A stretch of 64,000 bases of DNA from Oscillospiraceae bacterium (lineage in GTDB: Bacteria > Bacillota > Clostridia > Oscillospirales > Oscillospiraceae). Location: the NCBI GenBank assembly GCA_015068455.1, contig SVKO01000007.1, positions 62,001-126,000 of the forward strand, in the 5' to 3' direction. The position numbers and the translations under genes are program-made. Below the pieces are notes generated by a model. The model ran no database searches. It worked only from the letters and a program-made list of their open reading frames with translations, and had not been told where the DNA came from. Shown piece after piece: positions 2,112 to 25,558 of this stretch (the first letter of the stretch is position 1; each line of letters begins with the position of its first letter).

Positions 2112-2157
2112 TAAAATACTCGGATGAAACGAGTGACCAACGGCATATTCTTTACGT

Positions 2158-2260
2158 CGAGGGTCGTGTGGACAGCGTAGATATGTGCCATTTTATTCAC
2201 GCTATTGTCCCAAGGCATGTGGAGACGGTCGTATTGATGACAAGAGAACTGACGGACTGA
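2158..2260 (+). repeat. Decayed copy of an rlmD-type 3' end (copy 2)
   Basis: Read in frame from 2158, this non-genic stretch encodes VDSVDMCHFIHAIVPRHVE then TVVLMTRELTD and a TGA at 2258-2260. This matches the C-terminus of RumA/RlmD enzymes and the resident gene's HVESVVLMSR. At DNA level it shares CATGTGGA, GTCGT and TTGATG with 1612-1644. It contains no start or body of the gene, so it is a tail left by insertion, not a second methyltransferase. Confidence 0.75.
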
Positions 2261-2281
2261 TATTAATGGAGATGATACATA

Positions 2282-2788
2282 ATGAGTTTTTCAATTTACG
2301 CTGATAACTTGACGTGGATCAACGATAATAAAGATGATCCGGAAGACCTCTGCCTTCACGGTCATGCAGTTGTAATTATCGGTAATCATAAGCTTGAATA
2401 TGAAGCAACAGTCAGCGCAACATCACTGTACTTGTTGAAAACACTTACTGAAGATCATATCATATTTGAAGATAATCAAATGTTACCTTGCTGCGGCCAT
2501 TTTATGATTCCAAACGAGGAACTTGATACTGTAACTATTCTTGGTTGTCCGAATGGGATTGACTGGTCTGTTATACATAATAAAGACGATTCAGTAACAT
2601 TGGAATTAGAAGACGGGACAAAAGAGATAGTCACTTTAACTGATTATGAGAAACAGGTTTATCGTTTTGCAGACGTGATAGAAAACTTCTACTTGTCATG
2701 TTCACCTAAAGTAATGCCGAAAGACCCGTTTGAAAAAAACGCGTATATAGCTTTCTGGAATGAATGGCATAGGCGCAGAGGCAAATAA
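2282..2788 (+). CDS. Hypothetical protein of the rlmD islet
   Basis: A 168-residue acidic, soluble protein with no signal peptide or membrane segment. I do not recognise it. The N-terminal half has alternating hydrophobic strands (HAVVIIGNHKLEYEATVSAT), suggesting a small beta-rich fold, and there is a CCGHF motif in the middle. The C-terminus ends in an aromatic and basic stretch (FWNEWHRRRGK). RBS GGAGATG lies 8 bases before the ATG. It is AT-rich like its islet neighbours and is flanked by two rlmD-tail copies. Size and context resemble immunity or antitoxin-like cargo, but nothing in the sequence proves that. Confidence 0.7.
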   Translation: MSFSIYADNLTWINDNKDDPEDLCLHGHAVVIIGNHKLEYEATVSATSLYLLKTLTEDHIIFEDNQMLPCCGHFMIPNEELDTVTILGCPNGIDWSVIHNKDDSVTLELEDGTKEIVTLTDYEKQVYRFADVIENFYLSCSPKVMPKDPFEKNAYIAFWNEWHRRRGK

Positions 2789-2858
2789 GTCCTGGCTCGT
2801 GAAGGTGACGGCTTTATTCTGTTGCCTCGACCCTTATTGATGATGGGAACTAAGCCAC

Positions 2859-2999
2859 GAGGGTGTGCGAGTAGTCAGCATAGATAATGCCCTTTTTATC
2901 CGCGCCATTGTTCCAAGGCATGTGGAGACGGTGACACTTTTATCCCGCAGAAAAGATGAGCCGAGAGTACAGGTGACGATGACTTGCAAGTCTGACTAA
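2859..2999 (+). repeat. Decayed copy of an rlmD-type 3' end (copy 3)
   Basis: In frame from 2859 this reads EGVRVVSIDNALFIRAIVPR, then HVETVTLLSRRKDEPRVQVT and a TAA at 2997-2999. It is homologous to copy 2 along its whole length (AIVPRHVETV is identical). It carries the longer C-terminal form typical of clostridial RumA proteins, so it probably comes from a different donor allele than the resident rlmD end. Confidence 0.75.
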
Positions 3000-3055
3000 T
3001 ACAGTAAAGAAACGTTTTAATAAATTAACAAATCGTATTTATGGGGATGACTCAG

Positions 3056-3706
3056 ATGAACTATAAGGTAATTGACAGAGAAACATATTATAGAAAAGGT
3101 GTGTACCGTCACTTCTCGGAAGATTGTAAATGCTCGACATCCATGACGGCGAGAATAGATGTCACAAATCTCGCTGCATATTCCAAGAAAACAGAAACAA
3201 AGTTTTATATCAACTTTTTATATATTCTTTCAAAGGTTATGAATTCACGCGAAGATTACAGAATGGGATATCTCTGGCAGACAGATGAACTGATTTGCTA
3301 TGACGTGGTCAATCCCACACAGTATGTCTTCCATGAAGACACGGAAACCTGCACCCCTGTGTATACGGAATACTTTGAGGACTATGATAAGTTCTACGCT
3401 GCTGCATTGCGGGATGTTGAAGAGGCGAAGAAGACAAGGGAATACGAGCTGGATATGCAAAATCATCCCAACTGGTTCGATGCCTCGTTTATTTCATGGC
3501 TCTCTTATGATTCACTGAATCTTGAGCTGCCCGATGGAAATCTGTATTTTGCGCCAATTGTCAATTGGGGAAAATACAGGGAAGAAAACGAAAGACTTGT
3601 CATGCCTGTAACTGTTCGGCTGAATCACGCGATTGCTGATGGTTATTTGGTCGCAAATGTATTCCGCCTTCTGGAGCAAGAAATAAAGTTGTTTGTTGGG
3701 CTTTGA
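3056..3706 (+). CDS. Chloramphenicol O-acetyltransferase-like protein (CAT type A fold)
   Basis: A 216-residue member of the trimeric CAT family, which uses acetyl-CoA to acetylate chloramphenicol or similar acceptors. The family's catalytic motif HxxxDG is present as LNHAIADGYL near the C-terminus. The upstream SxxxWxxxxxLNL segment (ASFISWLSYDSLNLEL) and the RMGY segment are also conserved. The length equals the family norm (about 215). I chose ATG 3056 (MNYKVIDRE) because GGGGATG lies just before it; ATGs at 3041 and 3047 are less well placed. The histidine motif differs from classic resistance enzymes (HHAVCDG), so true chloramphenicol activity is uncertain. AT-rich, single-gene unit of the islet. 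Confidence 0.85.
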   Translation: MNYKVIDRETYYRKGVYRHFSEDCKCSTSMTARIDVTNLAAYSKKTETKFYINFLYILSKVMNSREDYRMGYLWQTDELICYDVVNPTQYVFHEDTETCTPVYTEYFEDYDKFYAAALRDVEEAKKTREYELDMQNHPNWFDASFISWLSYDSLNLELPDGNLYFAPIVNWGKYREENERLVMPVTVRLNHAIADGYLVANVFRLLEQEIKLFVGL

Positions 3707-3723
3707 TTGATATATTCAAAACT

Positions 3724-3756
3724 GTCGAGACGGTGGTATTGATGACAAAGAAATAG
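3724..3756 (+). repeat. Decayed copy of an rlmD-type 3' end (copy 4)
   Basis: A short in-frame remnant reading VETVVLMTKK and TAG at 3754-3756. At DNA level GTCGAGACGGT and GTATTGATGACAA match copy 2. The stretch upstream of it is already lost. Confidence 0.65.
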
Positions 3757-3796
3757 ACAAATCGCCATTTGTATGGTTGGCTTTTAAGGAGAACAG

Positions 3797-4681
3797 ATGG
3801 AAAAAGCTGCTAAAAACAGAAAGATACTTATTTTGTACTTGGTTATAACAATCTGCCTGACCTGGCTCTTGCAGTTTATGCCGATGATCATGGGGCTGGA
3901 TATTGAAAACACGTCGATATCTTCATTCGATCCTGCCTCCCTGTTCTTCGGAGTCGGAGGCGTAATGCCGACCCTGACTGCTTTTATTTTTGTGTTCGTT
4001 TTCTATACGAAGGACGGGATAAAGGATTTTCTGAAAAGATGCTTTGTTCCCAATAAGGAATGTATTGCCGCAATTCTGATTTCGCTTGGACTGATTTGTG
4101 CAGAAGTATTTGTGACACAGATGATTTCGAAAGGCCTTGGCGCAGAGAAGCTTGGCTTTGAGGGAGTAAAGCTGATCGCGAAGAACCCGTTGTATTTCTT
4201 TTATTTTCTGTTTTGGGGAATCATCTCCGGGCCTTTTTCTGAAGAATTTGGATGGAGAGGCTTCCTGACGGATCGATTGTTTCAAAAAAGCAAGCTGCTT
4301 CAAGCATCACTGTGTATCGGTTTTATCTGGGGTATCTGGCATCTGCCGTTATACTTTTATCCGGCACAGATTCAGCACGATTGGTTTATGATCAATCCGT
4401 TATTGGGTTTGCTCTTTATCGTGAGCTGCATGTCGGCAGCACTTGTATACACGACGATCTATGTGATTGCAAAAAGAAAGGTGTTTCCGATTTTCTTTCT
4501 GCACATGTTTAAGAATATCATTTTGACCGGCGCAATGATCTATCCGTTTTCGGATACCTACAGTAAAGTTGTTGTTTTCGTTGAGATCGTACTGGATCTA
4601 TTGTTCTATGTTGTATTTACAAGAACGGCTTTCTACCGAACCGCCTTAGAACAAACATCGGAATTTGACTATCTTAAGTAG
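3797..4681 (+). CDS. CPBP-family intramembrane glutamic protease
   Basis: A 294-residue polytopic membrane protein of the CAAX-protease/bacteriocin-processing (CPBP, Rce1-like) family. The motif 1 glutamates are in SEEFGWRGFL, motif 2 is WGIWHLPLYF and a third conserved His is in LHMFKN. About seven hydrophobic segments are visible. Such proteins are linked to self-immunity against peptide bacteriocins or to peptide processing, but no bacteriocin gene is seen here. RBS AAGGAG precedes the ATG. It is the last AT-rich unit of the islet; base composition returns to GC-rich after about 4.75 kb. No clear rlmD-tail copy follows it. Confidence 0.85.
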   Translation: MEKAAKNRKILILYLVITICLTWLLQFMPMIMGLDIENTSISSFDPASLFFGVGGVMPTLTAFIFVFVFYTKDGIKDFLKRCFVPNKECIAAILISLGLICAEVFVTQMISKGLGAEKLGFEGVKLIAKNPLYFFYFLFWGIISGPFSEEFGWRGFLTDRLFQKSKLLQASLCIGFIWGIWHLPLYFYPAQIQHDWFMINPLLGLLFIVSCMSAALVYTTIYVIAKRKVFPIFFLHMFKNIILTGAMIYPFSDTYSKVVVFVEIVLDLLFYVVFTRTAFYRTALEQTSEFDYLK

Positions 4682-12167: not shown

Positions 12168-12210
12168 ACAAAAAACCGGCCTCCCCTGATGCGGGAGGCC
12201 GGATTTTTTA
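12168..12210. terminator. Bidirectional terminator between the SLH gene and the pilus operon
   Basis: A 10-bp stem CCGGCCTCCC / GGGAGGCCGG (12176-12202) has an A-run on its left (12168-12175) and a T-run on its right (12203-12208). It can stop transcripts from both converging sides. Confidence 0.85.
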
Positions 12211-12837
12211 TGATTCGTTTTCAGAAATACAGCAGACCGCGAAGCGCAGACTTCCGTCGGCGGTGCAGGTGAACAGGGTCAGATCCCATTCGCTTTCGGT
12301 CATCTCCCGGACCTGATCCGGCGAGAGGGTATGGATCTCCGCCGCAACGAAGCGGAAGCGGCTTCCGTCCATATCCGTGACGATCACGGCGTCCCCGGGG
12401 CGCATGGACCACAGAGGGGCGAAGTGCGTGGTGTAGTTGTGCCCCGCGATCACCAGATTGTTCAGATAGAGGGAGCCGCTGTACCGGCAGGGGGCGATGC
12501 GCAGACCATCGTAGCTCCAGTGGGAAAGGACCGGCAGCTCCAGCTCCAGCGACGGGATCTCAAGCATGGCCACGTAGGTCTCGCCGTCGATCTCCCGCTC
12601 GGGCATCTCCCGGTTGGGGTCCAGGATATAATCCGGGATCAGCATCTCTCCGGCCGGCGCATCATCCGGCGTCGCCGCGGGCTCCGGAAGGACCGCCTGC
12701 AGCTGCTGCGCCGCTTCCGCGGACACACGGCCGGCGCGGCGGCTGTCGAGGCGGTTGTAGGCCGTCAGGCCCAGGGCCGCCAGGAGCAGCAGCGTCCCGA
12801 GGACGATGCAGACGCTTCCCTTACGATTGCGCTTCAT
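12208..12837 (-). CDS. Sortase (second sortase of the pilus locus)
   Basis: A 209-residue membrane-anchored transpeptidase: N-terminal membrane segment at about 8-27, then the sortase fold. The catalytic His is in VIAGHNYTTHF, the Cys in LTLFTCTADG and the Arg in SLRFAV. It is smaller than the class C enzyme of this locus and has no C-terminal membrane helix, so it may act as the housekeeping-type enzyme that links the finished pilus to the cell wall; class assignment (D or B-like) is uncertain. It overlaps the minor pilin gene by 17 bases. Confidence 0.85.
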   Translation of the reverse strand: MKRNRKGSVCIVLGTLLLLAALGLTAYNRLDSRRAGRVSAEAAQQLQAVLPEPAATPDDAPAGEMLIPDYILDPNREMPEREIDGETYVAMLEIPSLELELPVLSHWSYDGLRIAPCRYSGSLYLNNLVIAGHNYTTHFAPLWSMRPGDAVIVTDMDGSRFRFVAAEIHTLSPDQVREMTESEWDLTLFTCTADGSLRFAVCCISENES

Positions 12838-13756
12838 CGCTTCTGCGGCGTCTTCTCAGACCGACGATCAGCAGGATCAGGCCCACCGCCGCCAGCAGCG
12901 GCACGGGCCACCAGAGCTGACCGGTCCGGGGCAGACGATCCTTCGGGCCGCCGGGCTTCTCCGGATCCTTGGGCGGATTGTCCGACGGCACCCGGGTGTT
13001 GGTCAGGGTGAAGGTGACGCCGTTCTTTTCCACCTTGACGGTGTAGCCCGGGAATTCCTTCTCCACGACCTCCCAGCGATAGCCGGCGTCCAGAGCATCC
13101 CAGACGCAGCGCCAGTTGTTTTCTTTATTCAGGACGGCTGTATCCTGGATCTCGCCGTCGCGCAGGAGCTGGACCGTGATCTCGGCGGGACGCTCGTCCT
13201 CATAGCCGGCGTCCTCCCAGATCTTGAGCGCCCGGCGCGACACGGTCTCGGGGCCCACCGGGGGATTGACCTCGCTCTTGACGTCGGCGTCCACATCGAA
13301 GATCCATTTGCTCCCGCTGCCGGTCGGCACGCTGAGAATGCACTCGGAGGGCAGCACGTTGGCGCCCTTGACCTCGATCCGGTCGCCCAGAACGAGATAG
13401 AGGCCGGCGGGCAGATCCGCCAGCTTCAGCATACCGTTTGCATCCGTGACGCCTTCGGCGCTGGGGGTGAGCCGGTCGCGGCGGGTATAGCCGGCGAAGG
13501 TCTCCGCCAGGGATTGCCAGTCCTGGCCAGCGGAGGCCAGATCGATGGGATAGGCAGCATATGTATCTGTCATTGCGTATGAGCCGTTTTCCAGCCGCTC
13601 CGCCACCTGATAGGCGCGGAAGGGCACCCCGCTCATGGGGCCGTCCTGCCCGGAAAAATGCAGGGTGATCGTACCGGTCTGTCCGGCGGCCTGGACGCAG
13701 ACGCCCAGCACCAACAGGCAGATGAGAGTCAGCAGGAATCGTTTCGCGATGCGCAT
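12821..13756 (-). CDS. Minor (base) pilin with CnaB domain and LPRTG sorting signal
   Basis: A 311-residue secreted protein. Signal peptide 1-24 (cut near VQAAG) is followed by a SpaA-like prealbumin domain (ITLHFSGQDGPMSGVPFRAY) and a second CnaB domain (RRALKIWEDAGYEDERP then ITVQLLRDG). A Pro-rich linker leads to the sorting signal LPRTG, a membrane helix and a basic tail. It should be covalently joined to the pilus or cell wall by a sortase. Small size, single copy and position between the two sortases suggest the basal subunit. Confidence 0.85.
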   Translation of the reverse strand: MRIAKRFLLTLICLLVLGVCVQAAGQTGTITLHFSGQDGPMSGVPFRAYQVAERLENGSYAMTDTYAAYPIDLASAGQDWQSLAETFAGYTRRDRLTPSAEGVTDANGMLKLADLPAGLYLVLGDRIEVKGANVLPSECILSVPTGSGSKWIFDVDADVKSEVNPPVGPETVSRRALKIWEDAGYEDERPAEITVQLLRDGEIQDTAVLNKENNWRCVWDALDAGYRWEVVEKEFPGYTVKVEKNGVTFTLTNTRVPSDNPPKDPEKPGGPKDRLPRTGQLWWPVPLLAAVGLILLIVGLRRRRRSDEAQS

Positions 13757-13768
13757 GAATAGTCTCCT

Positions 13769-14620
13769 TTATTTCTTGGGGCGTTGCTTGTGTTTTTTCC
13801 GCTCCGCCCGCCAGTTGTCCTCATTGAGGAACCAGATGAGCAGAACGATCAGCAGCGGTACCGCCACAACGGGCGCCACCAGCAGCGGGTCGACCTGCAC
13901 AGCGTCAGACGTGACGCGGACGTATTTAGCCTGCTCCGGGTTTTCGATGCGGTGACCGCGCACCAGGAGCCGGTGGGTATTGACGCCGTAGGGCGTGCAT
14001 GTGACGAGGGTGCACAGGTCCTCGTCGGGATCGATTTCCAGCCCCTGGGTCTCATAGGGCAGGACGATGCGGATCCGGTCCACCTCGTAGGTGAGGACCT
14101 CCTTCATGGTGCACAGGCTGAAAATATCACCCTCCGCAATCTTGTCAAGATCCGTGAACAGTCTGGCGGAGGGCAGGCCCCGGTGGCCGGACAGGACGCA
14201 GTGCGTTCCTTTCCCGCCCACGGGCAGAGAACTGCCCTCGATATGTCCCACGGCGATCTGCAGCACCTCTTCATCCGTGGAGTGATAGACAGGCAGGCTG
14301 ATGCCGAGGGAGGGGATCTCCACGGAGCACATGATGCCCGTGCCCGTCACATCCAGGGTCTGAAGATAGCGGGCGTGCTCCTCCGGCGTCGGGTTCCAGC
14401 GGTCGGAAAACCCGCGCAGATCTTCGTTGAACTGCTGCGCCTCCTGCCACAGCGTCTCGTATCGCTCGGCATCCATGTCGGCGACCGTTTCCATATAGGA
14501 GGCAACCGCCGCGCTCTGATGGAAGGAGTTCCAGTAGTCGCTGACGGTGGGATACAGCAGCAGAGACAGGCCAAGGATCAATATCAAAAAAAGGAGAATC
14601 GTCGTCGCATGCTTTTTCAT
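13769..14620 (-). CDS. Class C (pilin-polymerising) sortase
   Basis: A 283-residue sortase with the class C layout: an N-terminal membrane helix, a lid-containing segment, the catalytic His in LSGHRGLPSARLF, Cys in TLVTCTPYGVNTHR with the Arg in HRLLVRG, and a C-terminal membrane helix followed by a basic tail. Class C sortases cross-link pilin subunits through a pilin lysine and the LPxTG threonine. I chose ATG 14620 (MKKHATT) since GGAGAGG lies just before it. It lies between the major and minor pilin genes. Confidence 0.93.
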   Translation of the reverse strand: MKKHATTILLFLILILGLSLLLYPTVSDYWNSFHQSAAVASYMETVADMDAERYETLWQEAQQFNEDLRGFSDRWNPTPEEHARYLQTLDVTGTGIMCSVEIPSLGISLPVYHSTDEEVLQIAVGHIEGSSLPVGGKGTHCVLSGHRGLPSARLFTDLDKIAEGDIFSLCTMKEVLTYEVDRIRIVLPYETQGLEIDPDEDLCTLVTCTPYGVNTHRLLVRGHRIENPEQAKYVRVTSDAVQVDPLLVAPVVAVPLLIVLLIWFLNEDNWRAERKKHKQRPKK

Positions 14621-14650
14621 TTGGCCTCTCCGCACTGCTGTATACATCTA

Positions 14651-14741: not shown

Positions 14742-16220
14742 TCAGTCGCGGGCGCCCATGCGCTTCTTGGTGATGAGCAGGATGGCCGCGAAGGCAACCA
14801 GCAGACCGCCGAGCACATAGAAGATGGTGGTGCCGATGCCGCCGGTGGAGGGCAGGGTGTTGCCCTGCTTGTTCTCGATGTCGCTGGAGACAACGCCGGT
14901 ATCGATATCGCCTTCAAAGATGTCGCCGCCAGTCAGGGCAGTCAGAGCGGGGTCATCCGATTCCTCGTCGTGTTCGGCGCTGACGGTGAATTCGATGTCG
15001 TCGACGCTGTTGTAGCCGTCGGGTGTTTTGGTCTCATGCAGCTTGTATTCGCCGTCGTCAATGCCTTCCCAGGCAAAGGAGGTCAGATTGTCTTCGGCAA
15101 CCTCGCCCAGGGAAACCCACTCGCCGTCCACCTTCTTGAACAGCTCGAAGGCGGCGCCTTCCAGGGGGTCACCTTTCTCATCGACCTTGTTGACATTCAC
15201 TTTGTAGGTAAAGACGATGACCTTATCCGGGGGAGTCTTGCCGGTGGTATCTTCGATGCCGTCGACGTCGGCGTTGGGGTTGTTGGAATACTCGACGTAC
15301 ATTTCGTTGGGGTTGCCGGCAGCGCCGATGGCAGCTTCATCATTCAGCTTGGAGGTGTATTCCACGGTGATGACGGAGCCGTTGCCAACGCCGTCGATTT
15401 CCGTCAGGTCGTCAAACACGACCTCAAAGGTGCAGTCGTCGTCGGGATTTTCCACAACGGTGAAACCGGTGATTTCCTCGCCGTCGGCATATGCCTTGAA
15501 GGAGTCAGCGTTCAGAGTCAGGCCGTCGCACTGCGTATCGTGGAAGACCAGCTTATAGGTTTCATACTTGTCAAAGTCGTTGGCAATGGTGGCCGTGAGC
15601 TGGAAGGGAACGTCATCGCCGATGTCGTAGTCGGCGCTGTCCTGCCAATCGCTGGTTTCGCCGGTGGTGTCGTTGGTGTCCTTGACCTTCTTCTGGGAGG
15701 AAACGATGTCGTCCTTTGCGTTGACCTCCACGTCGGAAACGACCTCAAGGATGAAGTCGGAATAGGTCTCGCCGTCGGGCATATCCGCGGTATTGGTGGT
15801 GTCGAGGATCAGATAGTAGCCGGCGTCCAGGCCCTCGATGGCGCCCTCGCCGGAGGCGGCGGCGGTGGTCTTGTTGGCTGCGATGATCTTGGCGAGGGCG
15901 GCAATCTCCTTGCTGTTGTTGTTGAAGCCTGCCAGAACGTCGGCAACGTCGGCGGCGTCTTCGCATTCGGCAAACGCGTCGCCGTAGGTGGCGTCGGCCT
16001 TCAGGGCCGCCAGAAGGGCGGGGCCGTCGACGCCTTCGCCCCACACAACATTGGACAGAATTTTCGATCCGTCTACTTCGGTCAGATCGCCGGAGAAGAC
16101 CTGGTACGCGGTGTAAGTATGGCCCTCGGTGGTGGCCATGGTGACGTCATATGCGGCGGCGCTGATGCCCAGACTGAAGAGCATAACGGCAGCCAGCAGG
16201 AGAGAGATAATCTTTTTCAT
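14742..16220 (-). CDS. Major pilin subunit (SpaA/EbpC-like) with LPSTG sorting signal
   Basis: A 492-residue exported protein. Signal peptide 1-22 (MKKIISLLLAAVMLFSLG, cut at AAAYD). An N-terminal pilin domain contains SSQKKVKDTND, where a Lys could serve as the isopeptide acceptor. The central domain is of the isopeptide-forming type, and a C-terminal CnaB domain runs KVNVNKVDEKGDPLEGAAFE to DGEYKLHETKTPDGY. The sorting signal LPSTGG is followed by a membrane helix and KKRMGARD. The canonical pilin motif with YPK is not evident. ATG 16220 has GGAAAG upstream. It is the most Asp/Glu-rich protein of the locus. Confidence 0.92.
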   Translation of the reverse strand: MKKIISLLLAAVMLFSLGISAAAYDVTMATTEGHTYTAYQVFSGDLTEVDGSKILSNVVWGEGVDGPALLAALKADATYGDAFAECEDAADVADVLAGFNNNSKEIAALAKIIAANKTTAAASGEGAIEGLDAGYYLILDTTNTADMPDGETYSDFILEVVSDVEVNAKDDIVSSQKKVKDTNDTTGETSDWQDSADYDIGDDVPFQLTATIANDFDKYETYKLVFHDTQCDGLTLNADSFKAYADGEEITGFTVVENPDDDCTFEVVFDDLTEIDGVGNGSVITVEYTSKLNDEAAIGAAGNPNEMYVEYSNNPNADVDGIEDTTGKTPPDKVIVFTYKVNVNKVDEKGDPLEGAAFELFKKVDGEWVSLGEVAEDNLTSFAWEGIDDGEYKLHETKTPDGYNSVDDIEFTVSAEHDEESDDPALTALTGGDIFEGDIDTGVVSSDIENKQGNTLPSTGGIGTTIFYVLGGLLVAFAAILLITKKRMGARD

Positions 16221-16299
16221 TGCTGTTCTTTCCTTTCTATCATCTGATTGTCTCATATTTCTCATGTTTTTTCGGTGCGGGAAGGTTCTCTTTGGGGTG

Positions 16300-19200
16300 C
16301 TACCCGGCCGGTCCCCCTTCCCCGCTCCGCGGCTTTCGTCGCCGGAGCTTGTTGTATGCGAGCACGCAGGCCGCCAGCAGCAGCGCCAGTCCGGCGAGCG
16401 TGTAGCGCGAGGTTCCTATACCGCCGGTCACCGGCAGTACGAAGCTTGTGGGCTTGGTCTGGTTGATTGCAGTGACCTCGTCCGTGCCCTCCCCGTCGTA
16501 TCCGACGAGGTTGTAGCCGTCGCCTTCACTGTCAAGCTCCACGACGTAATAGGTATATTCTATATAGCCCTGCCGTTTCGGCAGATCGGAAATGGTTTTG
16601 GTCCATCCGTCGGCACGGCTGACGGTGAACTCGTCCCCGTAAGGCTCCGCGCCGCTTTCCGTCAGGAAGTCCTGCAGCGCCTCCGGCGTCATCTCCACCG
16701 GGTAATCCACGCTGCGCGAAGCGGCGGCGGGGGCGCGCTGCGGCGGATCTTCGATCTCCGGTGCGGCAAGATCCGCCGACTGGATCTGCATGACGGACTT
16801 CCGTGCTGCGCTCGCGGTCCTGCGGCCTCCCACTTCGATGAATTCGTAATTCGCGACTGCATTCGGACCGCCGTCCAGCTGGACATACACCTGGATGTCT
16901 CCCGTCACGGCAAAGGGCTCGGAAGTATGGACAAGATGCATCGGATTGCTTCCGACCTCTTCGGTCGTAACCGCGATCTCCGTTCCGTTGACCGTCAGTC
17001 CAGTAACGCCGACGAACTGCCAATCCTGCATCGTAAGCACAAGCCGATACGTTCGGTTGTTCGTGACCTCGCCTGTTTTCGTTATCTGATAACCCCAATC
17101 CTGGGGCGCCGCGAGGATGACCGTCGCCGTTGCCGTTGTCACCGGTGGATTGTCCGGATCCTCGGCGCCGCAGCGGGTACAGATCCCGTTCACATAGTCG
17201 TGACCCAGGGCAGGTACCGTCGAATCGGTGTAGGTATCGCCGCAGCGGCTGCAGGTGTGGGTCGTATATCCGGCCTCGGTACAGGTGGGCTCCGTCACAG
17301 TATCGTGATAGTCATGGCCCAGGGCGGGGATCGTCTCGCTGTCCACCACCACGCCGCAGCCGGTGCAGTACCGCTCCCTCTGTCCGGTCTCGGTACAGGT
17401 GGGCTCCTGTACGGTCGTCCATTCACCCGGGGTGTGGGTGTGGACGGGGATGATCTCCGTCTCGGTGTAGCCGCAGCGTGTGCAGACGCGCTGCTTGAGG
17501 CCCGTTTCGGTGGTGGTGGGTTCCTTGACGACCTCCCAGGGGCCCATGTCATGGCCCAGGGCCGGGATCGTCTCGGTTTCCAGGAGCTCGCCGCAGATCG
17601 TGCAGTGGCGGACTCTGGTTCCCGGTTCGGTGCAGGTGGGCTCCTGCGTCACCTCCCAGTCGCCGGCCGTTTCCTCATGCTCGACGATCCGTTCGGTCCG
17701 GTAGATCCGGAAGCGCAGGCTGTCCACGCCGTCCGGCGCGCTCTCGGTCGGCTCGCCGAGCTTGTTGATCCAACGCTTGGTGACGACCAGATAGGTGTCG
17801 GAGCTGTTGGTCACGGTGGCTTCGCCGTCCTGGGTGCTGAGGTCGACGGCGTCGTCCGGTGCATCCTCCGGCCGCTGCCCGAAGTAGAAGTAATACTTCT
17901 GGGGCTCCGGCGGGAGGAAATAACCGTCCGGCGGTGTGACCTCGGTGATATAGTAGAGCACGCCGGTCTGGTAGACGGTGCTGTCGTCGGCGCCGACATC
18001 GGAGCGGCGCACCCGGAACCGGCCGTCGGGGCCGGATTCATAGGTGGTAAGCTGCTGCCCGGTATCGGCGCGGAACACGCCGAAGACCGCGCCCTCCAGG
18101 GGTTGATCCGTTCGGCTGTCCACCTTGGTAAAGTCATAGCTGTGGGTGGAGTAGTTGTTGGTGAACAGTACGGTCGAGGTCTGATCTTCGACCAGGGTGA
18201 CCTGCGCGCCGTCGGCGCTGTAGTCCGTGATCGTCTGTTCCTCGTCCTCATCCACAGCGTAGGTGGTGACGACGTGGTAGTCCGTGCCCTCGGCGGCGTA
18301 TGCCGCGCCGGTTTCGTACACGGTGTACTCGCCGGGGCCCAAATCATCGAAGGTGTAGGCACCTCCGGAATCGAAATCTCGGTAGCTGACCGTGCGCTCA
18401 AATCCGTCCGGTCCGGTGACGCGGAAGCTGATCCGTTCCTTCTGCTCGTCGGTCAGGGTTTCATTGCCGGCGAAGCGCTTGACGATGGTCAGCTGCGTCT
18501 GGTTGGTGACGGGCCTGTTGCGCACGCCCATTGTGTCGCCGATGTAGTACCTCGGGATGCCCTCCGGCGGTTCAAAGTCCGGATCGTCGGAAATGACGAA
18601 CGGAAGCGGGTTGTATTCCCGGGCGTACCCGTCCGGAGGCTCGATCTCCTCGAGATAGTAGACGGTGTTCTTGTGCAGGGTCATCCCGTCCAGGTTCTGC
18701 CGGAGCCAGACCAGGATGGGTTCATCCTCAGTGGTCTCGTAGATGACCGCCTCATCCCCCAGCATGACCGGCTCAAGATCGGTATCGAGGAGCCGGAATC
18801 GGGCGCCTGCCAGGGTGCCCTGCTCCATATGTCCTTCGGGATACTTCATCAGGTAGATCGCCACGATCTCGGCGCTGCCGCCGCCCCCGGAGGACATCTC
18901 CATGGTTTCGTCGGCATAATCGGAGAACCTTCCGTCGAGGACCACGTCGTTTCGGAACTGGACCAGGCCATCGCCGATTACCTTGGCGTCATACTCGATG
19001 ATCACCGCCGTCTCGTCCGGGATCTGGAACACGCCGGTCCGGTCAAAGAAGTCGTAGGTGACCTCGTCGTGGCGCGACGCCGGGTCCGTTGTGACCGTGA
19101 TGGAATCATAGTCGATCGACAGCGACGGCGAAGAGGTATCGGTCATTTCCATCGGATTGCCTTCGTTCAGCTGCAGCTTATCCGGGTTGATATTGATCGT

Positions 19201-22200
19201 AAAATGCTGGATGCGGTTGGTCTCTTCGCCGTTTTCGTCGATGCCGTTCTCCGCTTCCTTGCTGATCACTTTATAATTGTATTCCACCTCCGCGGTGTCG
19301 GTGGAGTCCTTGAATGAGGCGGTGTTCTGGAAGGTGGTGCTGCCGCCGTTGAACATGGCCTGCTGCTTGAGCGCGTCCTCATCCTTCAGGACGAGGTAGC
19401 AGGTCATACTGTAGAAGCCGTAATAGGCTGTTTGTTCGCCTGTACGGGGATCCACCAGTTTCGGCAAGTCTGTCATGGTAAACATGACGCCGTCCGGCCG
19501 GTCTGTCACCTGGGCGAACACTTCGCTGGGCATGCCTCCCCAAGGACCCTCTTTGGGTGTAATGCGCTGGGGCGTCAGCGCCGGCGTGTTGAACATCGGC
19601 AGGTTATAGAAGTTTTCGTCCTCTGCCAGGTCTTCCATCTCCAGGATATCAAACATGGAGGTGTCGAAGGTATCGAATATCTCCACCGGCTCCTTCTGCA
19701 CGCCCTCGATCGTAATCTGGAAGGGATAGGCCATGTATTCGCCGCCGTCCTTCAGCTTGACAGGCAGGGGATCCAGCAGCGGTTCGGTCTTGGTCGTCTT
19801 GGTGATCTTGGCCTTCAGCGGCGTGGCGGAAGCGATGGCTCTGCCGTTCTTTCCATCTGCCGAAACATCGACCTGGTTCTGATGGGTCTTCGCATATTCG
19901 TTTCCGGATTCCTGTCCGTAGGTCATCCAGTCGGGGTTGTTCCTCGTCCTGACTCTGATGATAATCTCCCGGTCTTTGTTTGTGGCCTTCAGCCCCGTCT
20001 GGTCCCGAGGGCCTTTGAAGAAGACAAGCTTTTCCGTCGTGATTCCGTGCCATTCATCATCGTTGATGAAATCGTTGCCGACCCAGTAGCCTGCGTTTGT
20101 CTCGGTGCATTCCCATCTCTCTCCCGGCTCCAGGCCCTCGACCAGGAAACCGTTCCTCCCGTAGGTCCGGTCAATGGGATCTGTCATATTGTCATGACCG
20201 AGATTGGGCAGCTGCTCGAGAACTGTAAAATCATCAAATCCTTCTGCAGGAACCGGGATCCGGATCGTCCATATAACGTATTCGTCTGTGACAGTGGTAG
20301 CCGTTTTGAAGACTTCAAGTTGTTCCTCGGGCTCGTCTCCGCTTCCGCTGCTGCCCTCACCCGGGACAAACTGACCTTCTACGGTTCTGTTATGGGCGTC
20401 GCTGACAGTGTTGGTCACCTCGATGGTGTCGCTTTCGACCCGGACCCTTGTAGTGTACGTGATCTCATATTGTGCGTTGCCGTCTGAACTCGGTGGTGTA
20501 TAGGACCAGCTCTTTCCGTCAGAGGACAGGGACAGCCCGTTTGTTCCCCAGGCTATCGTCCGTTCCTCCACACGGCCACCGGGGCCGGGGCCACCGGGAC
20601 CGCCGGGGCCGGGATTGTTGCGGGGTATCGTTGCCCTGACACTGATGCCTGTTCCCGTGAATTCCATCCTGCTGCGGGAATTGGCGTCGATGCTGTCCGT
20701 GATGGTTCCCACATTGGTCAGCATCTGGGAGTTTGCAAGGATGGTCCAGGTTATGTCGCGATACTTCTGTCCATTCTCCGTATAGACCTCACCGGGCATT
20801 CCTGCCCGCTTTGTCAGATCGGAAGACTCAATGTCAAAAAGATAATTGGTGCTGGAGTTGTTACCGGGATTATCGTCCTCTCTTGAAGAAATACGTGCGG
20901 TATTGCCCGTCTCAGAATAGCTGGTATGACCGCTGTGTCCCAGTTGGTCAAGATTAACACTGGCAGTATATTCTATAATGTATTGATCGCCGTCATTCAT
21001 GTCCGGCAGATCCATTGAGAAGCCCTTATCCGTATAACTCCAGTTGCCCCATTCCGGTCTCGGCACGGGTCTGCCGTTTTTACTGACCCTAAAGCCTCTC
21101 TCTCCGTCAAATGTCAGTGCAGAGCCCGTGATAGTATCGGTAACACGGACGTTTTCCGAGGTGCCCTGGGAGTTGACCACGAGCGTGTAGTGGATCTTAT
21201 TCTCCCTCTCATCATATCTGCCTGATTTCTGTATGCCTGTATCATGGGGGTTCGCCAGATTGACGGTTTTATCCAGGCCCGCGCCAAAGTGGAGATTGTT
21301 GACGTCGCTGTTGAGGGAGAAGTCCATGTTGAACACGACAGTGGCGCTGTCCGCCGCCTGAAGGACTTCAAATTTTTCCGCATCCGAGGTATTCCACCTG
21401 AAGCGGAGCTTACCGTTGCGGATCTCGTAGTCGTTGTTTTTCAGCGTGCCGAAGTAGCCGAGGTTCTGATCGAATTTGCCGCTGACGTTCATGACCTGCA
21501 GCTCGGGGGGCAGATCGTATTCCATCCAGCCGTCGTCGTCGGCGAACTGATGGCTCTGGTTCTCGCGGAAGGTCAGGGCCAGCCGATAGGTCTTGCCCTT
21601 GACCAGGTTCCCCCAGTCGGATCCGGTGATCTGCCGGCCGTCCACGGTGATGTTTGCGGCGGTGATCAGATCGTTGACATTGCCGCCGATTCTGGGAGAT
21701 GCACGAAGCGGCGGCGCGCCCATGAGGCGAACCGTGGTGCTGCGGAGCACGCTCTCTTCCAGCCCGGCCGGCTTCTGCTCGTCCTTCCCGGATCGCTCCG
21801 TGTCCGTTTCGTCCCCGGAAGCGGGGATGGCGCAGTAGCCGTCGATGCGCGGATCGCTCAGTTCATAGCTCACGCGGCTGACGCTGGCGGAATAGTTGCC
21901 CTCGATGGTGCCGAGGGTCTTGGTCTGGGCGTCGTAGCTCTCCACAATGCCGATATGGTCGGGCGTCAGCGTATCCTCGGCGATGCGGAGGAAGACGATG
22001 TCGCCGGGAACCGGCTCATAGAACCCGTCCGGTCCCTTGGGCGCGATGTACTGTCCGCGCTCGTCCAGCATGGCTGCCCAGCGGTCGCACGCGGCGCTGT
22101 GGGGGATCTCCGACTCCGGAACGCCGGCATAGTGCAGGCAGAAGGATACGAACATGGCGCACCAGGGCTCGTAGGGCATTCCGTACCAGGCGCCGTAGCG

Positions 22201-22848
22201 GGTGTAGCCGTGGCGCGCGCCGTCGGCGTCCTCCAGGAAATTGCGGTCGCTCTGACGGTAGCCCACCTGGCTCTTTGCCACGGTGAGCACGTCCTGCCGA
22301 CGGTTGCCGGTCAGGTTCAGGCCGGCGATCATCTGTGCCCAATCGCCCTCTCCCTCCACGTCCGCGGTGGTGTCGGCTTTCGACTGGAAGCAGCCGTCGG
22401 TGTGGGTGTGCTCCGGAATCTCGCAGACCAGCACCTGCTCGGTCTCGTAGCATTCGTCCGTGTGGACGTGGGGCTCGCACTCCTCCTGTTCGCAGACCAG
22501 CACCTGCTCCGTTTCGTAGCATTCCTCGGTGTGGACGTGATCCTCGTCCTCCTCCAGCGGGCAGATGAGACGTTCGGTGGTCTCATAGCACTCGTCGGTG
22601 TGGACATGGCCCTCCGTCTCGGCCAGCGTGCAGGTCAGGCGCTCCTGCTGCTCATAGCACGCCTCGGTGTGGGTGTGCTCCTCCATGCCGCAGCAGGGGG
22701 TCTTCTCCAGCGTGATCGCCGGCAGCACCAGGGCGTAGGTGGTGCAGAAGACGGTGATCACGCACAATATGCTGACGATCCTGCGCCAGGTTTGTATTCT
22801 CTTTTTGCGGGCTCTGCGCCCGTTCGCCTGACGCGGATACGTACTCAT
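16300..22848 (-). CDS. Giant pilus-tip adhesin: His/Cys repeats, CHAP domain, Cna domains, LPVTG
   Basis: A 2182-residue surface protein. A basic N-terminus and long signal/anchor helix (about 22-45) lead to five about 22-residue repeats (57-153) of the form HxHTxECYE...LxC. Next is a CHAP-type amidase domain (about 184-342) with the catalytic Cys near 230 (EPWCAMFVSFC) and His near 297 (DHIGIVE). About 380-1400 are adhesin-like beta domains with a Gly/Pro tract (PGPGGPGGPGPGG, near 750), and several CnaB domains follow. A late CnaB domain is interrupted by CxxC/LGHD repeats (about 1720-1900). The sorting signal is LPVTGG, then a membrane helix and a basic tail. It lies just upstream of the major pilin and so is probably the tip subunit. 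Confidence 0.88.
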   Translation of the reverse strand: MSTYPRQANGRRARKKRIQTWRRIVSILCVITVFCTTYALVLPAITLEKTPCCGMEEHTHTEACYEQQERLTCTLAETEGHVHTDECYETTERLICPLEEDEDHVHTEECYETEQVLVCEQEECEPHVHTDECYETEQVLVCEIPEHTHTDGCFQSKADTTADVEGEGDWAQMIAGLNLTGNRRQDVLTVAKSQVGYRQSDRNFLEDADGARHGYTRYGAWYGMPYEPWCAMFVSFCLHYAGVPESEIPHSAACDRWAAMLDERGQYIAPKGPDGFYEPVPGDIVFLRIAEDTLTPDHIGIVESYDAQTKTLGTIEGNYSASVSRVSYELSDPRIDGYCAIPASGDETDTERSGKDEQKPAGLEESVLRSTTVRLMGAPPLRASPRIGGNVNDLITAANITVDGRQITGSDWGNLVKGKTYRLALTFRENQSHQFADDDGWMEYDLPPELQVMNVSGKFDQNLGYFGTLKNNDYEIRNGKLRFRWNTSDAEKFEVLQAADSATVVFNMDFSLNSDVNNLHFGAGLDKTVNLANPHDTGIQKSGRYDERENKIHYTLVVNSQGTSENVRVTDTITGSALTFDGERGFRVSKNGRPVPRPEWGNWSYTDKGFSMDLPDMNDGDQYIIEYTASVNLDQLGHSGHTSYSETGNTARISSREDDNPGNNSSTNYLFDIESSDLTKRAGMPGEVYTENGQKYRDITWTILANSQMLTNVGTITDSIDANSRSRMEFTGTGISVRATIPRNNPGPGGPGGPGPGGRVEERTIAWGTNGLSLSSDGKSWSYTPPSSDGNAQYEITYTTRVRVESDTIEVTNTVSDAHNRTVEGQFVPGEGSSGSGDEPEEQLEVFKTATTVTDEYVIWTIRIPVPAEGFDDFTVLEQLPNLGHDNMTDPIDRTYGRNGFLVEGLEPGERWECTETNAGYWVGNDFINDDEWHGITTEKLVFFKGPRDQTGLKATNKDREIIIRVRTRNNPDWMTYGQESGNEYAKTHQNQVDVSADGKNGRAIASATPLKAKITKTTKTEPLLDPLPVKLKDGGEYMAYPFQITIEGVQKEPVEIFDTFDTSMFDILEMEDLAEDENFYNLPMFNTPALTPQRITPKEGPWGGMPSEVFAQVTDRPDGVMFTMTDLPKLVDPRTGEQTAYYGFYSMTCYLVLKDEDALKQQAMFNGGSTTFQNTASFKDSTDTAEVEYNYKVISKEAENGIDENGEETNRIQHFTININPDKLQLNEGNPMEMTDTSSPSLSIDYDSITVTTDPASRHDEVTYDFFDRTGVFQIPDETAVIIEYDAKVIGDGLVQFRNDVVLDGRFSDYADETMEMSSGGGGSAEIVAIYLMKYPEGHMEQGTLAGARFRLLDTDLEPVMLGDEAVIYETTEDEPILVWLRQNLDGMTLHKNTVYYLEEIEPPDGYAREYNPLPFVISDDPDFEPPEGIPRYYIGDTMGVRNRPVTNQTQLTIVKRFAGNETLTDEQKERISFRVTGPDGFERTVSYRDFDSGGAYTFDDLGPGEYTVYETGAAYAAEGTDYHVVTTYAVDEDEEQTITDYSADGAQVTLVEDQTSTVLFTNNYSTHSYDFTKVDSRTDQPLEGAVFGVFRADTGQQLTTYESGPDGRFRVRRSDVGADDSTVYQTGVLYYITEVTPPDGYFLPPEPQKYYFYFGQRPEDAPDDAVDLSTQDGEATVTNSSDTYLVVTKRWINKLGEPTESAPDGVDSLRFRIYRTERIVEHEETAGDWEVTQEPTCTEPGTRVRHCTICGELLETETIPALGHDMGPWEVVKEPTTTETGLKQRVCTRCGYTETEIIPVHTHTPGEWTTVQEPTCTETGQRERYCTGCGVVVDSETIPALGHDYHDTVTEPTCTEAGYTTHTCSRCGDTYTDSTVPALGHDYVNGICTRCGAEDPDNPPVTTATATVILAAPQDWGYQITKTGEVTNNRTYRLVLTMQDWQFVGVTGLTVNGTEIAVTTEEVGSNPMHLVHTSEPFAVTGDIQVYVQLDGGPNAVANYEFIEVGGRRTASAARKSVMQIQSADLAAPEIEDPPQRAPAAASRSVDYPVEMTPEALQDFLTESGAEPYGDEFTVSRADGWTKTISDLPKRQGYIEYTYYVVELDSEGDGYNLVGYDGEGTDEVTAINQTKPTSFVLPVTGGIGTSRYTLAGLALLLAACVLAYNKLRRRKPRSGEGGPAG

Positions 22849-22880: not shown

Positions 22881-23462
22881 TTATCCGACCCGGCCGAATT
22901 CCGATAACGGCCAGACCCGGAAAATGATCCTGCCGACGATTTGCTCTTTGGAAGCGCAGCCGACGGTGGAATTGCGGCTGTCCACCGAGGTGGACCGGTG
23001 ATCGCCCATCAGGAACCATCGCTCGTCCGGCACCTGATAGGGCAGCTCGATATCGCACTCGCCAAAGGCTTTTTCTGTCAGATAGGGTTCGTCCAGAGGA
23101 ACGTCGTTGACGCTGACGTTCCCCGCTTCGTCGATGTCCACCCAGTCGCCGGGGCCGGCGATGCACCGCTTGACCAGCAGCTTGTTGCCCAGGTAGAAGG
23201 CCAGCAGGTCGCCGGTCTCAAACTGGCTGCTCTTGACGGACACCACAAACTGTCCCTCGTCGAGGGTTGGCGTCATGGAGCTGCCGTAAATCTGCAGCAC
23301 CGGCATCCAGAGCGTTGCCACCAGGACGGCAATGGCCGCCACCACCACCAGCGAAAAGAAGGTGCTCCTGAGCACTCTGCGGTAGTTCTCGCGGTGTCGG
23401 GTCCGGCCCAGCTCCGCCTCCAGGGCTTCAACGCTGGGAATCTGTTTCTTCTGCTTTTTCAA
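22881..23462 (-). CDS. Signal peptidase I of the pilus locus
   Basis: A 193-residue type I signal peptidase with one N-terminal membrane helix (about 33-53). The catalytic Ser is in YGSSMTPTL, the Lys in LLVKRCIAGPGD, and the conserved box is GDHRSTSVDSR. Dedicated peptidases of this kind accompany Gram-positive pilus loci and process pilin precursors. The start is a TTG at 23462 with GGAGG 6 bases before it. It overlaps the preceding coiled-coil gene by 35 bases, so the two are translationally coupled. Confidence 0.93.
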   Translation of the reverse strand: MKKQKKQIPSVEALEAELGRTRHRENYRRVLRSTFFSLVVVAAIAVLVATLWMPVLQIYGSSMTPTLDEGQFVVSVKSSQFETGDLLAFYLGNKLLVKRCIAGPGDWVDIDEAGNVSVNDVPLDEPYLTEKAFGECDIELPYQVPDERWFLMGDHRSTSVDSRNSTVGCASKEQIVGRIIFRVWPLSEFGRVG

Positions 23463-23736
23463 CGTCTTCCTCCGTTGTCTCCAGGGTCTGCATCAGCGCC
23501 ATCACGTCGAACAGCAGCGTCCGGGCGTTTTTGCGGGCCGTATCGCGCATATCCTCCGAAAAGGCGTCGGACGCCATGGGGCGGCGGACCGGATCATCGG
23601 CGTCCCGTTCGGCCAAAGCGCGGCAGGCACAGTCGAGCTCCCGCTCCAGCTGCTCGATCCTGCGGCCCTGCTCGATCAGCAGCTCCAGCAGCTCGCTGCG
23701 CTTGTATTTTTTCAGATCAATGTCCTTCTTTGCCAC
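23428..23736 (-). CDS. Small coiled-coil protein heading the pilus operon
   Basis: About 102 residues, cytoplasmic. It begins VAKKDIDLKKYKRSELLELL and continues with a heptad-rich helix (EQGRRIEQLERELDCACRAL), then a second amphipathic helix (ARTLLFDVMALMQTLETTEED). Similar short proteins precede signal peptidase in clostridial pilus operons, but the role is not known. I chose GTG 23736 with GGAGG upstream; a longer in-frame reading from 23820 would run through the leader. Confidence 0.7.
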   Translation of the reverse strand: MAKKDIDLKKYKRSELLELLIEQGRRIEQLERELDCACRALAERDADDPVRRPMASDAFSEDMRDTARKNARTLLFDVMALMQTLETTEEDVEKAEETDSQR

Positions 23737-23824
23737 AGCCGGCCTCCGTTCCCGTTCCGAATTCTCGGGATGCTTGTATGTCAGGATGTATAATGCTGCA
23801 TATTTTTGACAAATCGTCATACGG

Positions 23825-24376: not shown

Positions 24377-25558
24377 ATGTCAAAACGGAAAATCATCGTC
24401 AACATTGTAACTGCATGCCTGCTGACGGCCATCGCCATCGGCGCATTCGTGATGGCAAACCGCAGCCGCCCCAACCCACAGGATTTACCGCCTGCGCTGC
24501 CGGAGGGGATGGAATACAGCATCGGAAATACCGTCGCCATCGGCCATTTTGAGAACATGGACGATATGGAGTTCATCGTCGATGACTGGGACGGCGAATA
24601 TGACCTGCAATTCGCCCACGGGCCGGACGCCCAGCTTGTCTGGTATCAGCAGGTCCTGGACTATACGGCCTATCGTGAATTCTGCAGCAACTGCCGAACA
24701 TGCGGCGTGACGCAGACCTATGACGATCCGTCTGCGCGATATATCGTCTACGGCGTGACCAATTCGATCGCCACCGACTATCAGGCCAGGCTGGCCGCGG
24801 TGGAATACGACGGAGATACGGCCCATCTGTATCTCTGGAGCAATATCAACTTTGACCCCGAGCAAACGCAGGGCGCATCATACCTGATCGTCGTTCCCAC
24901 AAACAAGGACGTAGATAAAATTGTGGCCCATCCGCTTCAAACATTGGATGATTACCAATGGTATGCGGAAAACGACGAACCCGAACCCGAACCGGAAAAA
25001 CCCATCATCTATCTCTACCCCGAACAGGAAACAGACGTGACTGTGGCCCTGGGCCACCCTGAGTGCATCACCCATTCCTATCCGGAGTACGACGGCCCAT
25101 GGCGCGTCAAAGCCCGGCCGGACGGCACCCTGACGGATCTGGAAACAGGCCGCGAGCTGTACAGCCTCTATTATGAGAACGCCAGCCCCATTCCCCTGCC
25201 GCAGACCGACGAGGGCTTCGTCGTCCGGGGCGGGGACACGGCGGCCTTCCTGGAGGAAAAGCTGGCGATCCTCGGCTTGACTCCCCGGGAGGCGGAGGAG
25301 TTCATCGTCTACTGGCTGCCCCGGCTGGAGGAAAACAAGTGGAACTACATCCGCTTCGCCGACTGGACGGAGATCGACGCCGAAATGCCCCTGGATATTT
25401 CGCCGCAGCCGGACAGTCTCATCCGCGTGCTGATGCTCTGGAAGCCCCTGGACGCGCCCATCGAGGTCCGGGAACAGACGCTGACCGCCCCGGCGCGCAC
25501 CGGCTTCACCGCCGTGGAATGGGGCGGCGCGGAGCTGAACGACGCCGCTGCTTCATAA
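24377..25558 (+). CDS. Membrane-anchored protein of unknown function (KPIIYLYP family)
   Basis: A 393-residue protein with one N-terminal membrane helix (about 7-27) and an extracytoplasmic body. The second half carries the motif KPIIYLYPEQETDVTVALG followed by HSYPEYDGPWRVKARPDGTL, a conserved clostridial domain of unknown role. An acidic PEPEPE linker separates the halves. No catalytic motif is visible. It has its own promoter and a strong terminator, so it is a single-gene transcript. Confidence 0.75.
   Translation: MSKRKIIVNIVTACLLTAIAIGAFVMANRSRPNPQDLPPALPEGMEYSIGNTVAIGHFENMDDMEFIVDDWDGEYDLQFAHGPDAQLVWYQQVLDYTAYREFCSNCRTCGVTQTYDDPSARYIVYGVTNSIATDYQARLAAVEYDGDTAHLYLWSNINFDPEQTQGASYLIVVPTNKDVDKIVAHPLQTLDDYQWYAENDEPEPEPEKPIIYLYPEQETDVTVALGHPECITHSYPEYDGPWRVKARPDGTLTDLETGRELYSLYYENASPIPLPQTDEGFVVRGGDTAAFLEEKLAILGLTPREAEEFIVYWLPRLEENKWNYIRFADWTEIDAEMPLDISPQPDSLIRVLMLWKPLDAPIEVREQTLTAPARTGFTAVEWGGAELNDAAAS

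What the first reader, a model, noticed from the sequence alone, without database searches (positions are those of the whole stretch)
16300..22848. Tip adhesin combining metal-type His/Cys repeats, a CHAP domain and a sortase signal
Five HxHTxECYE...C repeats right after the membrane anchor are followed by a CHAP amidase domain with its Cys and His intact, then a very long adhesin. A pilus tip that can open peptidoglycan or cleave a target, with a possible zinc- or copper-binding region at its N-terminus, is not the textbook tip pilin.
Basis: partly seen in the sequence, partly recalled or inferred. Interest (0 to 1): 0.55.

Follow-up and report, generated by a model that had tools for sequence, protein, structure and literature searches.

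The report
Pilus tip with cell-wall-enzyme head
This gut-type bacterium encodes a surface pilus whose outer end carries a row of Cys/His modules, probably metal-binding, and then a cell-wall-cutting enzyme domain; its active site is intact here, but most relatives found on the same kind of pilus have lost theirs while keeping the rest of the domain.

Summary
The gene is real: 2182 aa, minus strand. It has five HxHTxxC units, a CHAP domain with Cys230, His298 and Asn318 intact, an adhesin/CnaB stalk and LPVTG. It sits in a pilus operon (coiled-coil protein, signal peptidase I, tip, backbone, sortase C, base, second sortase) that recurs across Clostridia; the genome holds a second locus.

The pattern scan suggested near-universal conservation of the CHAP Cys, but one of its patterns spelled that Cys. 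A profile search over 391 and 345 whole genomes (overlapping) found 33 tip CHAPs. Only 4 keep Cys and His, two of them from this genome; 29 lost Cys (to S, D or N) and 27 of these also His. Of 31 repeat-less CHAPs in the same searches, 31 are intact. Disarming needs about five changes on a tree (at least two forced), while a block of the pocket stays 98% identical among disarmed tips.

The repeat unit is C-x4..10-H-x-H-x3-C. His-His-Cys travel together and units without the first Cys exist, which favours metal sites over disulfides; untested chemically.

Best reading: a peptidoglycan-recognising pilus tip, catalytically armed here and mostly kept as a binding pseudoenzyme elsewhere. New variant of a known kind.

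The parts
16300..22848 (-). tip subunit, 2182 aa, N-terminal signal/TM to LPVTG sorting signal
22711..22848 (-). residues 1-46: basic N-region and hydrophobic segment ending VLPAIT (signal peptide or anchor)
   Evidence: sequence
22390..22692 (-). residues 53-153: five C-x4..7-H-x-H-x3-C modules
21823..22311 (-). residues 180-342: CHAP (NlpC/P60-superfamily) domain
   Evidence: PF05257; AF2 pLDDT above 90 over nearly all of it; VIA Z 12.5 to 7cfl
22159..22161 (-). catalytic Cys230 codon
21955..21957 (-). catalytic His298 codon
21895..21897 (-). third polar residue Asn318 codon
20827..21675 (-). residues 392-674: MSCRAMM/CnaA-like adhesin domains (low-confidence model)
17689..18879 (-). residues 1324-1720: SpaA/DUF5979-type stalk domains (DUF5979 match below its cut-off)
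17170..17634 (-). residues 1739-1893: second, unrelated Cys/His repeat family (C-x9-C-x2-C..GH), lying within what looks like a CnaB-like domain
   Evidence: the insertion is my reading
16423..16437 (-). LPVTG sorting motif
23428..23820 (-). small coiled-coil-like protein, first gene of the operon
22881..23462 (-). signal peptidase I (PF10502, 101.9 bits)
14742..16265 (-). major (backbone) pilin, GramPos_pilinBB, LPSTG
13769..14647 (-). class C sortase
   Evidence: 266.7 bits, cut-off 160
12821..13756 (-). base pilin, Cna_B, LPRTG
12208..12837 (-). second sortase (class not settled)

Best explanation
P0001 is the tip subunit of a sortase C-assembled pilus. It leaves the cell by Sec, is probably processed by the operon's own signal peptidase, and is joined by its LPVTG to the backbone pilin, so that its N-terminus points outward. 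That outer end presents five Cys/His modules that most likely each hold a metal ion (probably zinc), then a CHAP domain whose conserved pocket recognises peptidoglycan stem peptide. In this genome both tip proteins keep a complete Cys-His-Asn triad, so the domain can probably also cut peptidoglycan of a contacted cell or of debris. In most relatives the pilus keeps the domain as a non-cutting binder, as mycobacterial RipD does. SHOWN: gene, operon, domain, intact triad, recurrent loss elsewhere, co-conservation of His-His-Cys. INFERRED: tip position, metal, peptidoglycan as ligand, activity.
For: Operon of seven genes in the window, repeated in relatives: 35 of 45 repeat-bearing ORFs with at least 2.5 kb downstream have a backbone pilin or sortase C nearby; 53 of 73 with at least 0.8 kb upstream have the signal peptidase. 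CHAP: Pfam in 50 of 51 aligned sequences; the model matches peptidoglycan hydrolases, Z 12.5 to a C. difficile autolysin, 11.2-11.3 to phage CHAP domains. Triad states: 4 of 33 tip CHAPs intact against 31 of 31 CHAPs without repeats. 15 pocket columns (chosen after seeing the conservation) 0.98 identical among 31 disarmed tips, catalytic columns 0.36, rest 0.37. Loss needs 5 changes, at least 2 forced by well-supported branches, shuffled mean 26. Repeat ligands: 195 CHHC, 27 -HHC, 17 C---, 1 C-HC, 2 CH--, 7 ---- of 249; 15 of 15 two-unit arrays have both units complete. RipD precedent: passages.
Against: No assay. Loss of the triad in most relatives shows that catalysis is dispensable for this kind of pilus. 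No structure coordinates were available, so metal geometry was not measured. Even Cys parity in 53 of 69 arrays also fits disulfides. Tip position rests on gene order and analogy. 10 of the 45 repeat-bearing ORFs have no pilin or sortase C nearby, including short repeat+CHAP proteins (L023, L025, L029, L037).
Confidence: 0.6

Rival explanations
1. Egress tool: the CHAP domain locally opens the cell's own wall so that the growing pilus can get out.
For: Being N-terminal on the first subunit, it would meet the wall first (inference); CHAP folds cut peptidoglycan (matches).
Against: 29 of 33 tip CHAPs have lost the Cys, 25 of 31 disarmed loci still showing a backbone pilin or sortase C; tips without any detected CHAP exist in the same operon type (L112, L114, L116, L117).
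Confidence: 0.12
2. The CHAP acts on a substrate other than peptidoglycan (host, mucin or dietary peptide or amide).
For: The fold also covers glutathionylspermidine amidase and phytochelatin synthase, which appear among weaker structural matches; the neighbouring domains resemble host-matrix adhesins.
Against: The best structural and profile matches are peptidoglycan hydrolases and endolysins.
Confidence: 0.15
3. The repeats are disulfide-bonded spacer modules and carry no metal.
For: Extracellular location; even Cys number in 53 of 69 arrays.
Against: Histidines are practically never lost while C2 is kept (1 C-HC of 249 sites); 32 of 374 units lack C1 but keep His-His-C2; six tandem HTHxxxC units without C1 in L031; no DSBA, Thioredoxin_4 or VKOR match in the genome, with positive controls ringing (other oxidases not tested).
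Confidence: 0.25
4. Not a pilus tip but a monomeric wall-anchored autolysin-adhesin that happens to sit beside pilin genes.
For: 10 of 45 homologues lack pilin neighbours; some are short, without LPXTG.
Against: Conserved operon order and a sorting motif like the backbone's (LPVTGGIGT and LPSTGGIGT against LPRTGQLWW of the base).
Confidence: 0.1

Closest known systems
Sortase-assembled pili of Gram-positive bacteria (tip, backbone, base, sortase C)
   Same: Gene content, CnaB/SpaA domains, LPXTG signals, class C sortase
   Different: Tip carries Cys/His modules plus a CHAP domain; an operon signal peptidase and a small coiled-coil gene accompany it
CHAP endolysins and NlpC/P60 autolysins (LysK, PlyC, C. 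difficile Acd24020)
   Same: Fold and triad
   Different: Placed at the end of a wall-anchored pilus protein; triad lost in most tip relatives
RipD, non-catalytic NlpC/P60 domain of M. tuberculosis (4jxb)
   Same: Hydrolase fold with an altered catalytic site, reported to bind peptidoglycan (PDB title; review passages)
   Different: Secreted mycobacterial protein, not a pilus part; the window copy itself keeps its triad
MSCRAMM collagen and fibrinogen adhesins (Ace, Cna, Sdr)
   Same: Residues 392-674 modelled alike
   Different: Low-confidence model, 8-15% identity; no ligand known
Streptococcal histidine-triad (Pht) zinc proteins (recalled, no call)
   Same: Surface proteins with repeated His motifs
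   Different: Motif HxxHxH without Cys (recalled); no such family among the Pfam matches to P0001

Membership tests
Sortase C pilus operon | class C sortase beside LPXTG pilins | tested here: met
   NF033745 266.7 bits (cut-off 160); GramPos_pilinBB 78.3 bits (cut-off 30.5)
Sortase C pilus operon | P0001 has a C-terminal sorting signal | tested here: met
   LPVTG, hydrophobic stretch, RRRK; Pfam Gram_pos_anchor 15.2 bits, below its cut-off of 20
Sortase C pilus operon | P0001 at the pilus end in a covalent polymer | not testable with these tools
   needs biochemistry or immuno-EM
CHAP domain PF05257 | profile match above the curated cut-off | tested here: met
   30.7 against 26 bits for residues 46-345; 50 of 51 aligned sequences match at E up to 0.1
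CHAP domain PF05257 | Cys-His-(Asn) active site present | tested here: met
   C230, H298, N318
CHAP domain PF05257 | peptidoglycan hydrolysis | not testable with these tools
   no assay
TIGR02594 family | score above the NCBIfam cut-off | tested here: not met
   29.3 against 70.55 bits
MSCRAMM (Cna/Ace type) | two adjacent Ig-like domains of the DEv-IgG kind | tested here: inconclusive
   Model pLDDT 63.9; matches at Z 12-13 but rmsd 12-18 A over two domains; no Pfam hit in that region
Non-catalytic NlpC/P60 (RipD-like) | altered catalytic site | tested here: not met
   not met by the window copy; met by 29 of 33 tip CHAPs
Metal-binding CHHC module | four ligands co-conserved | tested here: inconclusive
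   His-His-C2 inseparable; C1 separable in about 9% of units
Metal-binding CHHC module | bound metal | not testable with these tools
   no coordinates or spectroscopy

The most novel reading that the evidence does not exclude
A lineage of gut Clostridia pili uses a cell-wall hydrolase head as its tip receptor for other bacteria: a metal-loaded Cys/His array presents a CHAP domain that originally cut peptidoglycan and has repeatedly been disarmed into a peptidoglycan-gripping adhesin, giving armed and disarmed pili. In the four genomes with two or more census tips, all tips of one genome share their state (2 armed; 2, 3 and 3 disarmed). The window genome carries two armed loci and could wound neighbours by touch.
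Probability: 0.35. Interest if true: 0.78.

Novelty: new variant of a known kind. Interest (0 to 1): 0.58.

Why it matters
Known tip pilins are mostly discussed as adhesins for host matrix. A pilus whose end is a cell-wall enzyme, armed in some species and disarmed in others, would give a directly testable case of how an enzyme becomes a receptor, and a possible contact weapon or wall-recognition device between gut bacteria. The Cys/His modules are a wide family without a Pfam name here, for which a metal assay is simple.

Tried and rejected
1. 'Near-universal Cys conservation' (68 of 69) was first taken as support, then rejected: the genome-contig scan used the pattern WCAMFVSF among six, so it mostly selects intact Cys. 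The profile search reversed the picture. Profile A2 held 14 rows with the Cys and 12 without; a small bias remains either way.

2. Standalone-domain reading of L010 and L013: their short repeat+CHAP ORFs are followed by a second ORF ending in LPXTG, so they are probably broken or frameshifted tips, not short enzymes; L022 and L054 likewise. No base was put back. L023, L025, L029, L037 do look like short forms.

3. Repeat-number link: median 7 units in 39 armed tips, 2 in 30 disarmed tips, but at most 4 independent pairs on the tree (1 on starred branches), so not claimed as causal.

4. Phage origin: MT835974 (L111) is labelled a phage but carries signal peptidase, tip, backbone pilin, sortase C and base, so I read it as bacterial DNA.

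5. Phase variation: no homopolymer of 7 or more in the window gene or in 452 bases upstream.

6. Rows dropped: from the tree L189 and L190 (same tips as L015, L017), L060-L063 duplicates, L111, hits under 60 bits and spans under 110 aa (L012, whose His/Asn part did not align, is not in the tree). From the armed/disarmed census L208 (E 2.9e-42, disarmed) and L111 are left out as beyond E 1e-50 or not from those searches. From array counts: contig-cut ORFs, L054, L022, L189, L190, L111. L121 has one unit with C2 changed to R, outside the set. In one search part of the '-HHC' and 'C---' rows are other spacings, not true losses.

7. Families absent from the structure lists are not excluded. The repeats were not separately folded. 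An 'LPA[x]T' signal-end motif was found in only 23 of 81 ORFs, so it is not a family mark.

8. Literature: searches (open PMC library, listings only) named no CHAP-bearing pilus tip; one search was for RipD. Passages read in PMC2928729, PMC4140077, PMC6814731, PMC6628586. Subscription papers and preprints were not searched.
Full report
WHAT IS THERE. The ORF window:16300-22848 (minus strand, 2182 aa) exists as described. In order: a basic, hydrophobic N-terminus ending VLPAIT; five HxHTxxC units (residues 58-153); a CHAP domain (180-342) with C230, H298 and N318; about 300 residues modelled as paired Ig-like adhesin domains; SpaA-type domains; a second Cys/His repeat family (1739-1893); and LPVTG with a hydrophobic stretch and RRRK. 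Five HxHxxxC in 114 residues is far above chance: shuffles give 0.08 on average, at most 2 in 20,000.

OPERON. On the same strand lie a small coiled-coil-like gene, a signal peptidase I (PF10502, 101.9 bits), the tip, a backbone pilin, a class C sortase, a Cna_B base pilin and a second sortase. Tip and backbone share LPxTGGIGT, the base has LPRTGQLWW. The same gene set recurs in relatives, sometimes with the tip last (L006, L080): 35 of 45 repeat-bearing ORFs with enough downstream sequence have a backbone pilin or sortase C near, 33 of 38 if only ORFs of 700 aa or more are counted; 53 of 73 have the signal peptidase. The window's genome has a second locus with a 2336-aa tip, backbone pilin, sortase C and signal peptidase.

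THE CHAP DOMAIN. AlphaFold2 on residues 46-345 with 50 relatives gives mean pLDDT 88.7, above 90 over nearly all of the CHAP part. Structural matches are cell-wall hydrolases: C. difficile autolysin Acd24020 (Z 12.5, rmsd 2.7, 121 aligned), LysGH15 and LysK CHAP (Z 11.2-11.3); profile matches are phage endolysins. The first survey, by back-translated patterns, gave Cys in 68, His in 66 and Asn in 63 of 69 aligned CHAPs, but one of its six patterns spells the Cys motif, so it cannot measure loss. A profile made from 14 domains with the Cys and 12 without was then run over 391 genomes of the class and 345 of the order (overlapping sets). At E up to 1e-50 it found 13 and 22 places, 33 distinct, in 27 genomes. 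Four are intact: both window-genome tips, G645 and G508. Twenty-nine have lost the Cys (mostly Ser, else Asp or Asn) and 27 of these also the His. In the 59 loci returned by those searches, 27 domains lie behind HxH repeats (3 intact; the window copy was not returned as a locus), one on a cut contig is disarmed, and the 31 without such repeats are all intact. Fisher test of 4/29 against 31/0: p about 3e-14, though rows are related, and only the best-scoring loci were read.

On a tree of 89 CHAP domains with the three catalytic columns removed, armed and disarmed need 5 changes, at least 2 forced by well-supported branches, against 26 for shuffled labels; many deep branches are weak. Among 31 disarmed tips, 15 pocket-block columns (Q194 to C237, picked after seeing them) are 0.98 identical pairwise, the catalytic columns 0.36 and the remaining columns 0.37; armed tips give 0.95, 0.97 and 0.43. 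The armed set comes mostly from the pattern scan, which inflates its figures near the Cys. The catalytic residues of disarmed tips thus drift like the background while the rest of the cleft region is frozen. This is what a domain kept for binding would show. RipD of M. tuberculosis is a precedent: an NlpC/P60 domain without hydrolase activity, adapted to peptidoglycan binding.

THE REPEATS. The unit is C-x4..10-H-x-H-x3-C: 342 of 374 units have the first Cys, the first unit is complete in 61 of 69 arrays, and all 15 two-unit arrays are complete. A scan that ignored the four ligand positions found 195 CHHC, 27 -HHC, 17 C---, 7 ----, 2 CH-- and 1 C-HC sites of 249; so the histidines stay with the second Cys, and the first Cys can go. 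L031 holds six tandem HTHxxxC units without it. A disulfide-only module would predict the reverse. The genome gave no match to DSBA, Thioredoxin_4 or VKOR although the controls rang; other oxidases were not tested. In L048, L056 and L051 the unrelated C-x9-C-x2-C..GH repeats, which this tip has near its C-terminus, take the same place before the CHAP: two Cys/His families in one position. Tips without a detected CHAP still have the HxH repeats (L112, L114, L116, L117), so the repeats are the more constant part of the tip and the CHAP is frequent but optional.

THE ADHESIN PART. Residues 375-870 were folded with only two relatives: pLDDT 63.9, all beta. Matches are pilin D2 domains and collagen/fibrinogen adhesins. 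This supports an adhesin/stalk without naming a ligand.

READING. The tip presents metal-type modules and a peptidoglycan-recognising CHAP at the far end. In this genome the triad is kept in both copies, whose CHAP domains are 46% identical, which suggests that cutting matters here. Elsewhere the domain is mostly kept without cutting. In the four genomes with more than one census tip (G000, G144, G317, G716), tips of one genome agree in state. Whether the armed tip attacks neighbours, trims debris or helps egress is open; dispensability of the triad speaks against egress.

NOVELTY. A new variant of sortase-assembled pili. No paper in the searched open library described a CHAP-bearing tip (listings), which does not exclude subscription papers or annotation-level knowledge.

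Noticed in passing
window 17170-17634 (minus), and L048, L056, L051: A second Cys/His repeat family (C-x9-C-x2-C..GH) sits near the tip's C-terminus here and takes the place of the HxH repeats before the CHAP in three other loci.
   Followed up: partly
window 2001-4000: GC falls to 0.41 against about 0.6; the stretch holds a chloramphenicol acetyltransferase-family gene (3041-3706, PF00302, 160 bits) and is followed by an Rce1-like membrane protease gene (3797-4681), probably acquired DNA.
   Followed up: partly
window 23428-23820 (minus): Small coiled-coil-like gene heads the pilus operon here and in several relatives; it has no Pfam match.
   Followed up: partly
L010, L013, L022, L054: Tip genes broken into two overlapping or adjacent ORFs; assembly error or real decay not distinguished.
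   Followed up: partly
L111 (MT835974.1): Record labelled Bacteriophage sp. holds a bacterial pilus operon with a tip whose CHAP has lost its Cys.
   Followed up: yes
window 24377-25558 (plus): 393-aa predicted membrane or secreted protein next to the operon, without a Pfam match.
   Followed up: no
G000, G144, G317, G716: In genomes with several census tip proteins, all tips of one genome are in the same state (armed or disarmed).
   Followed up: no
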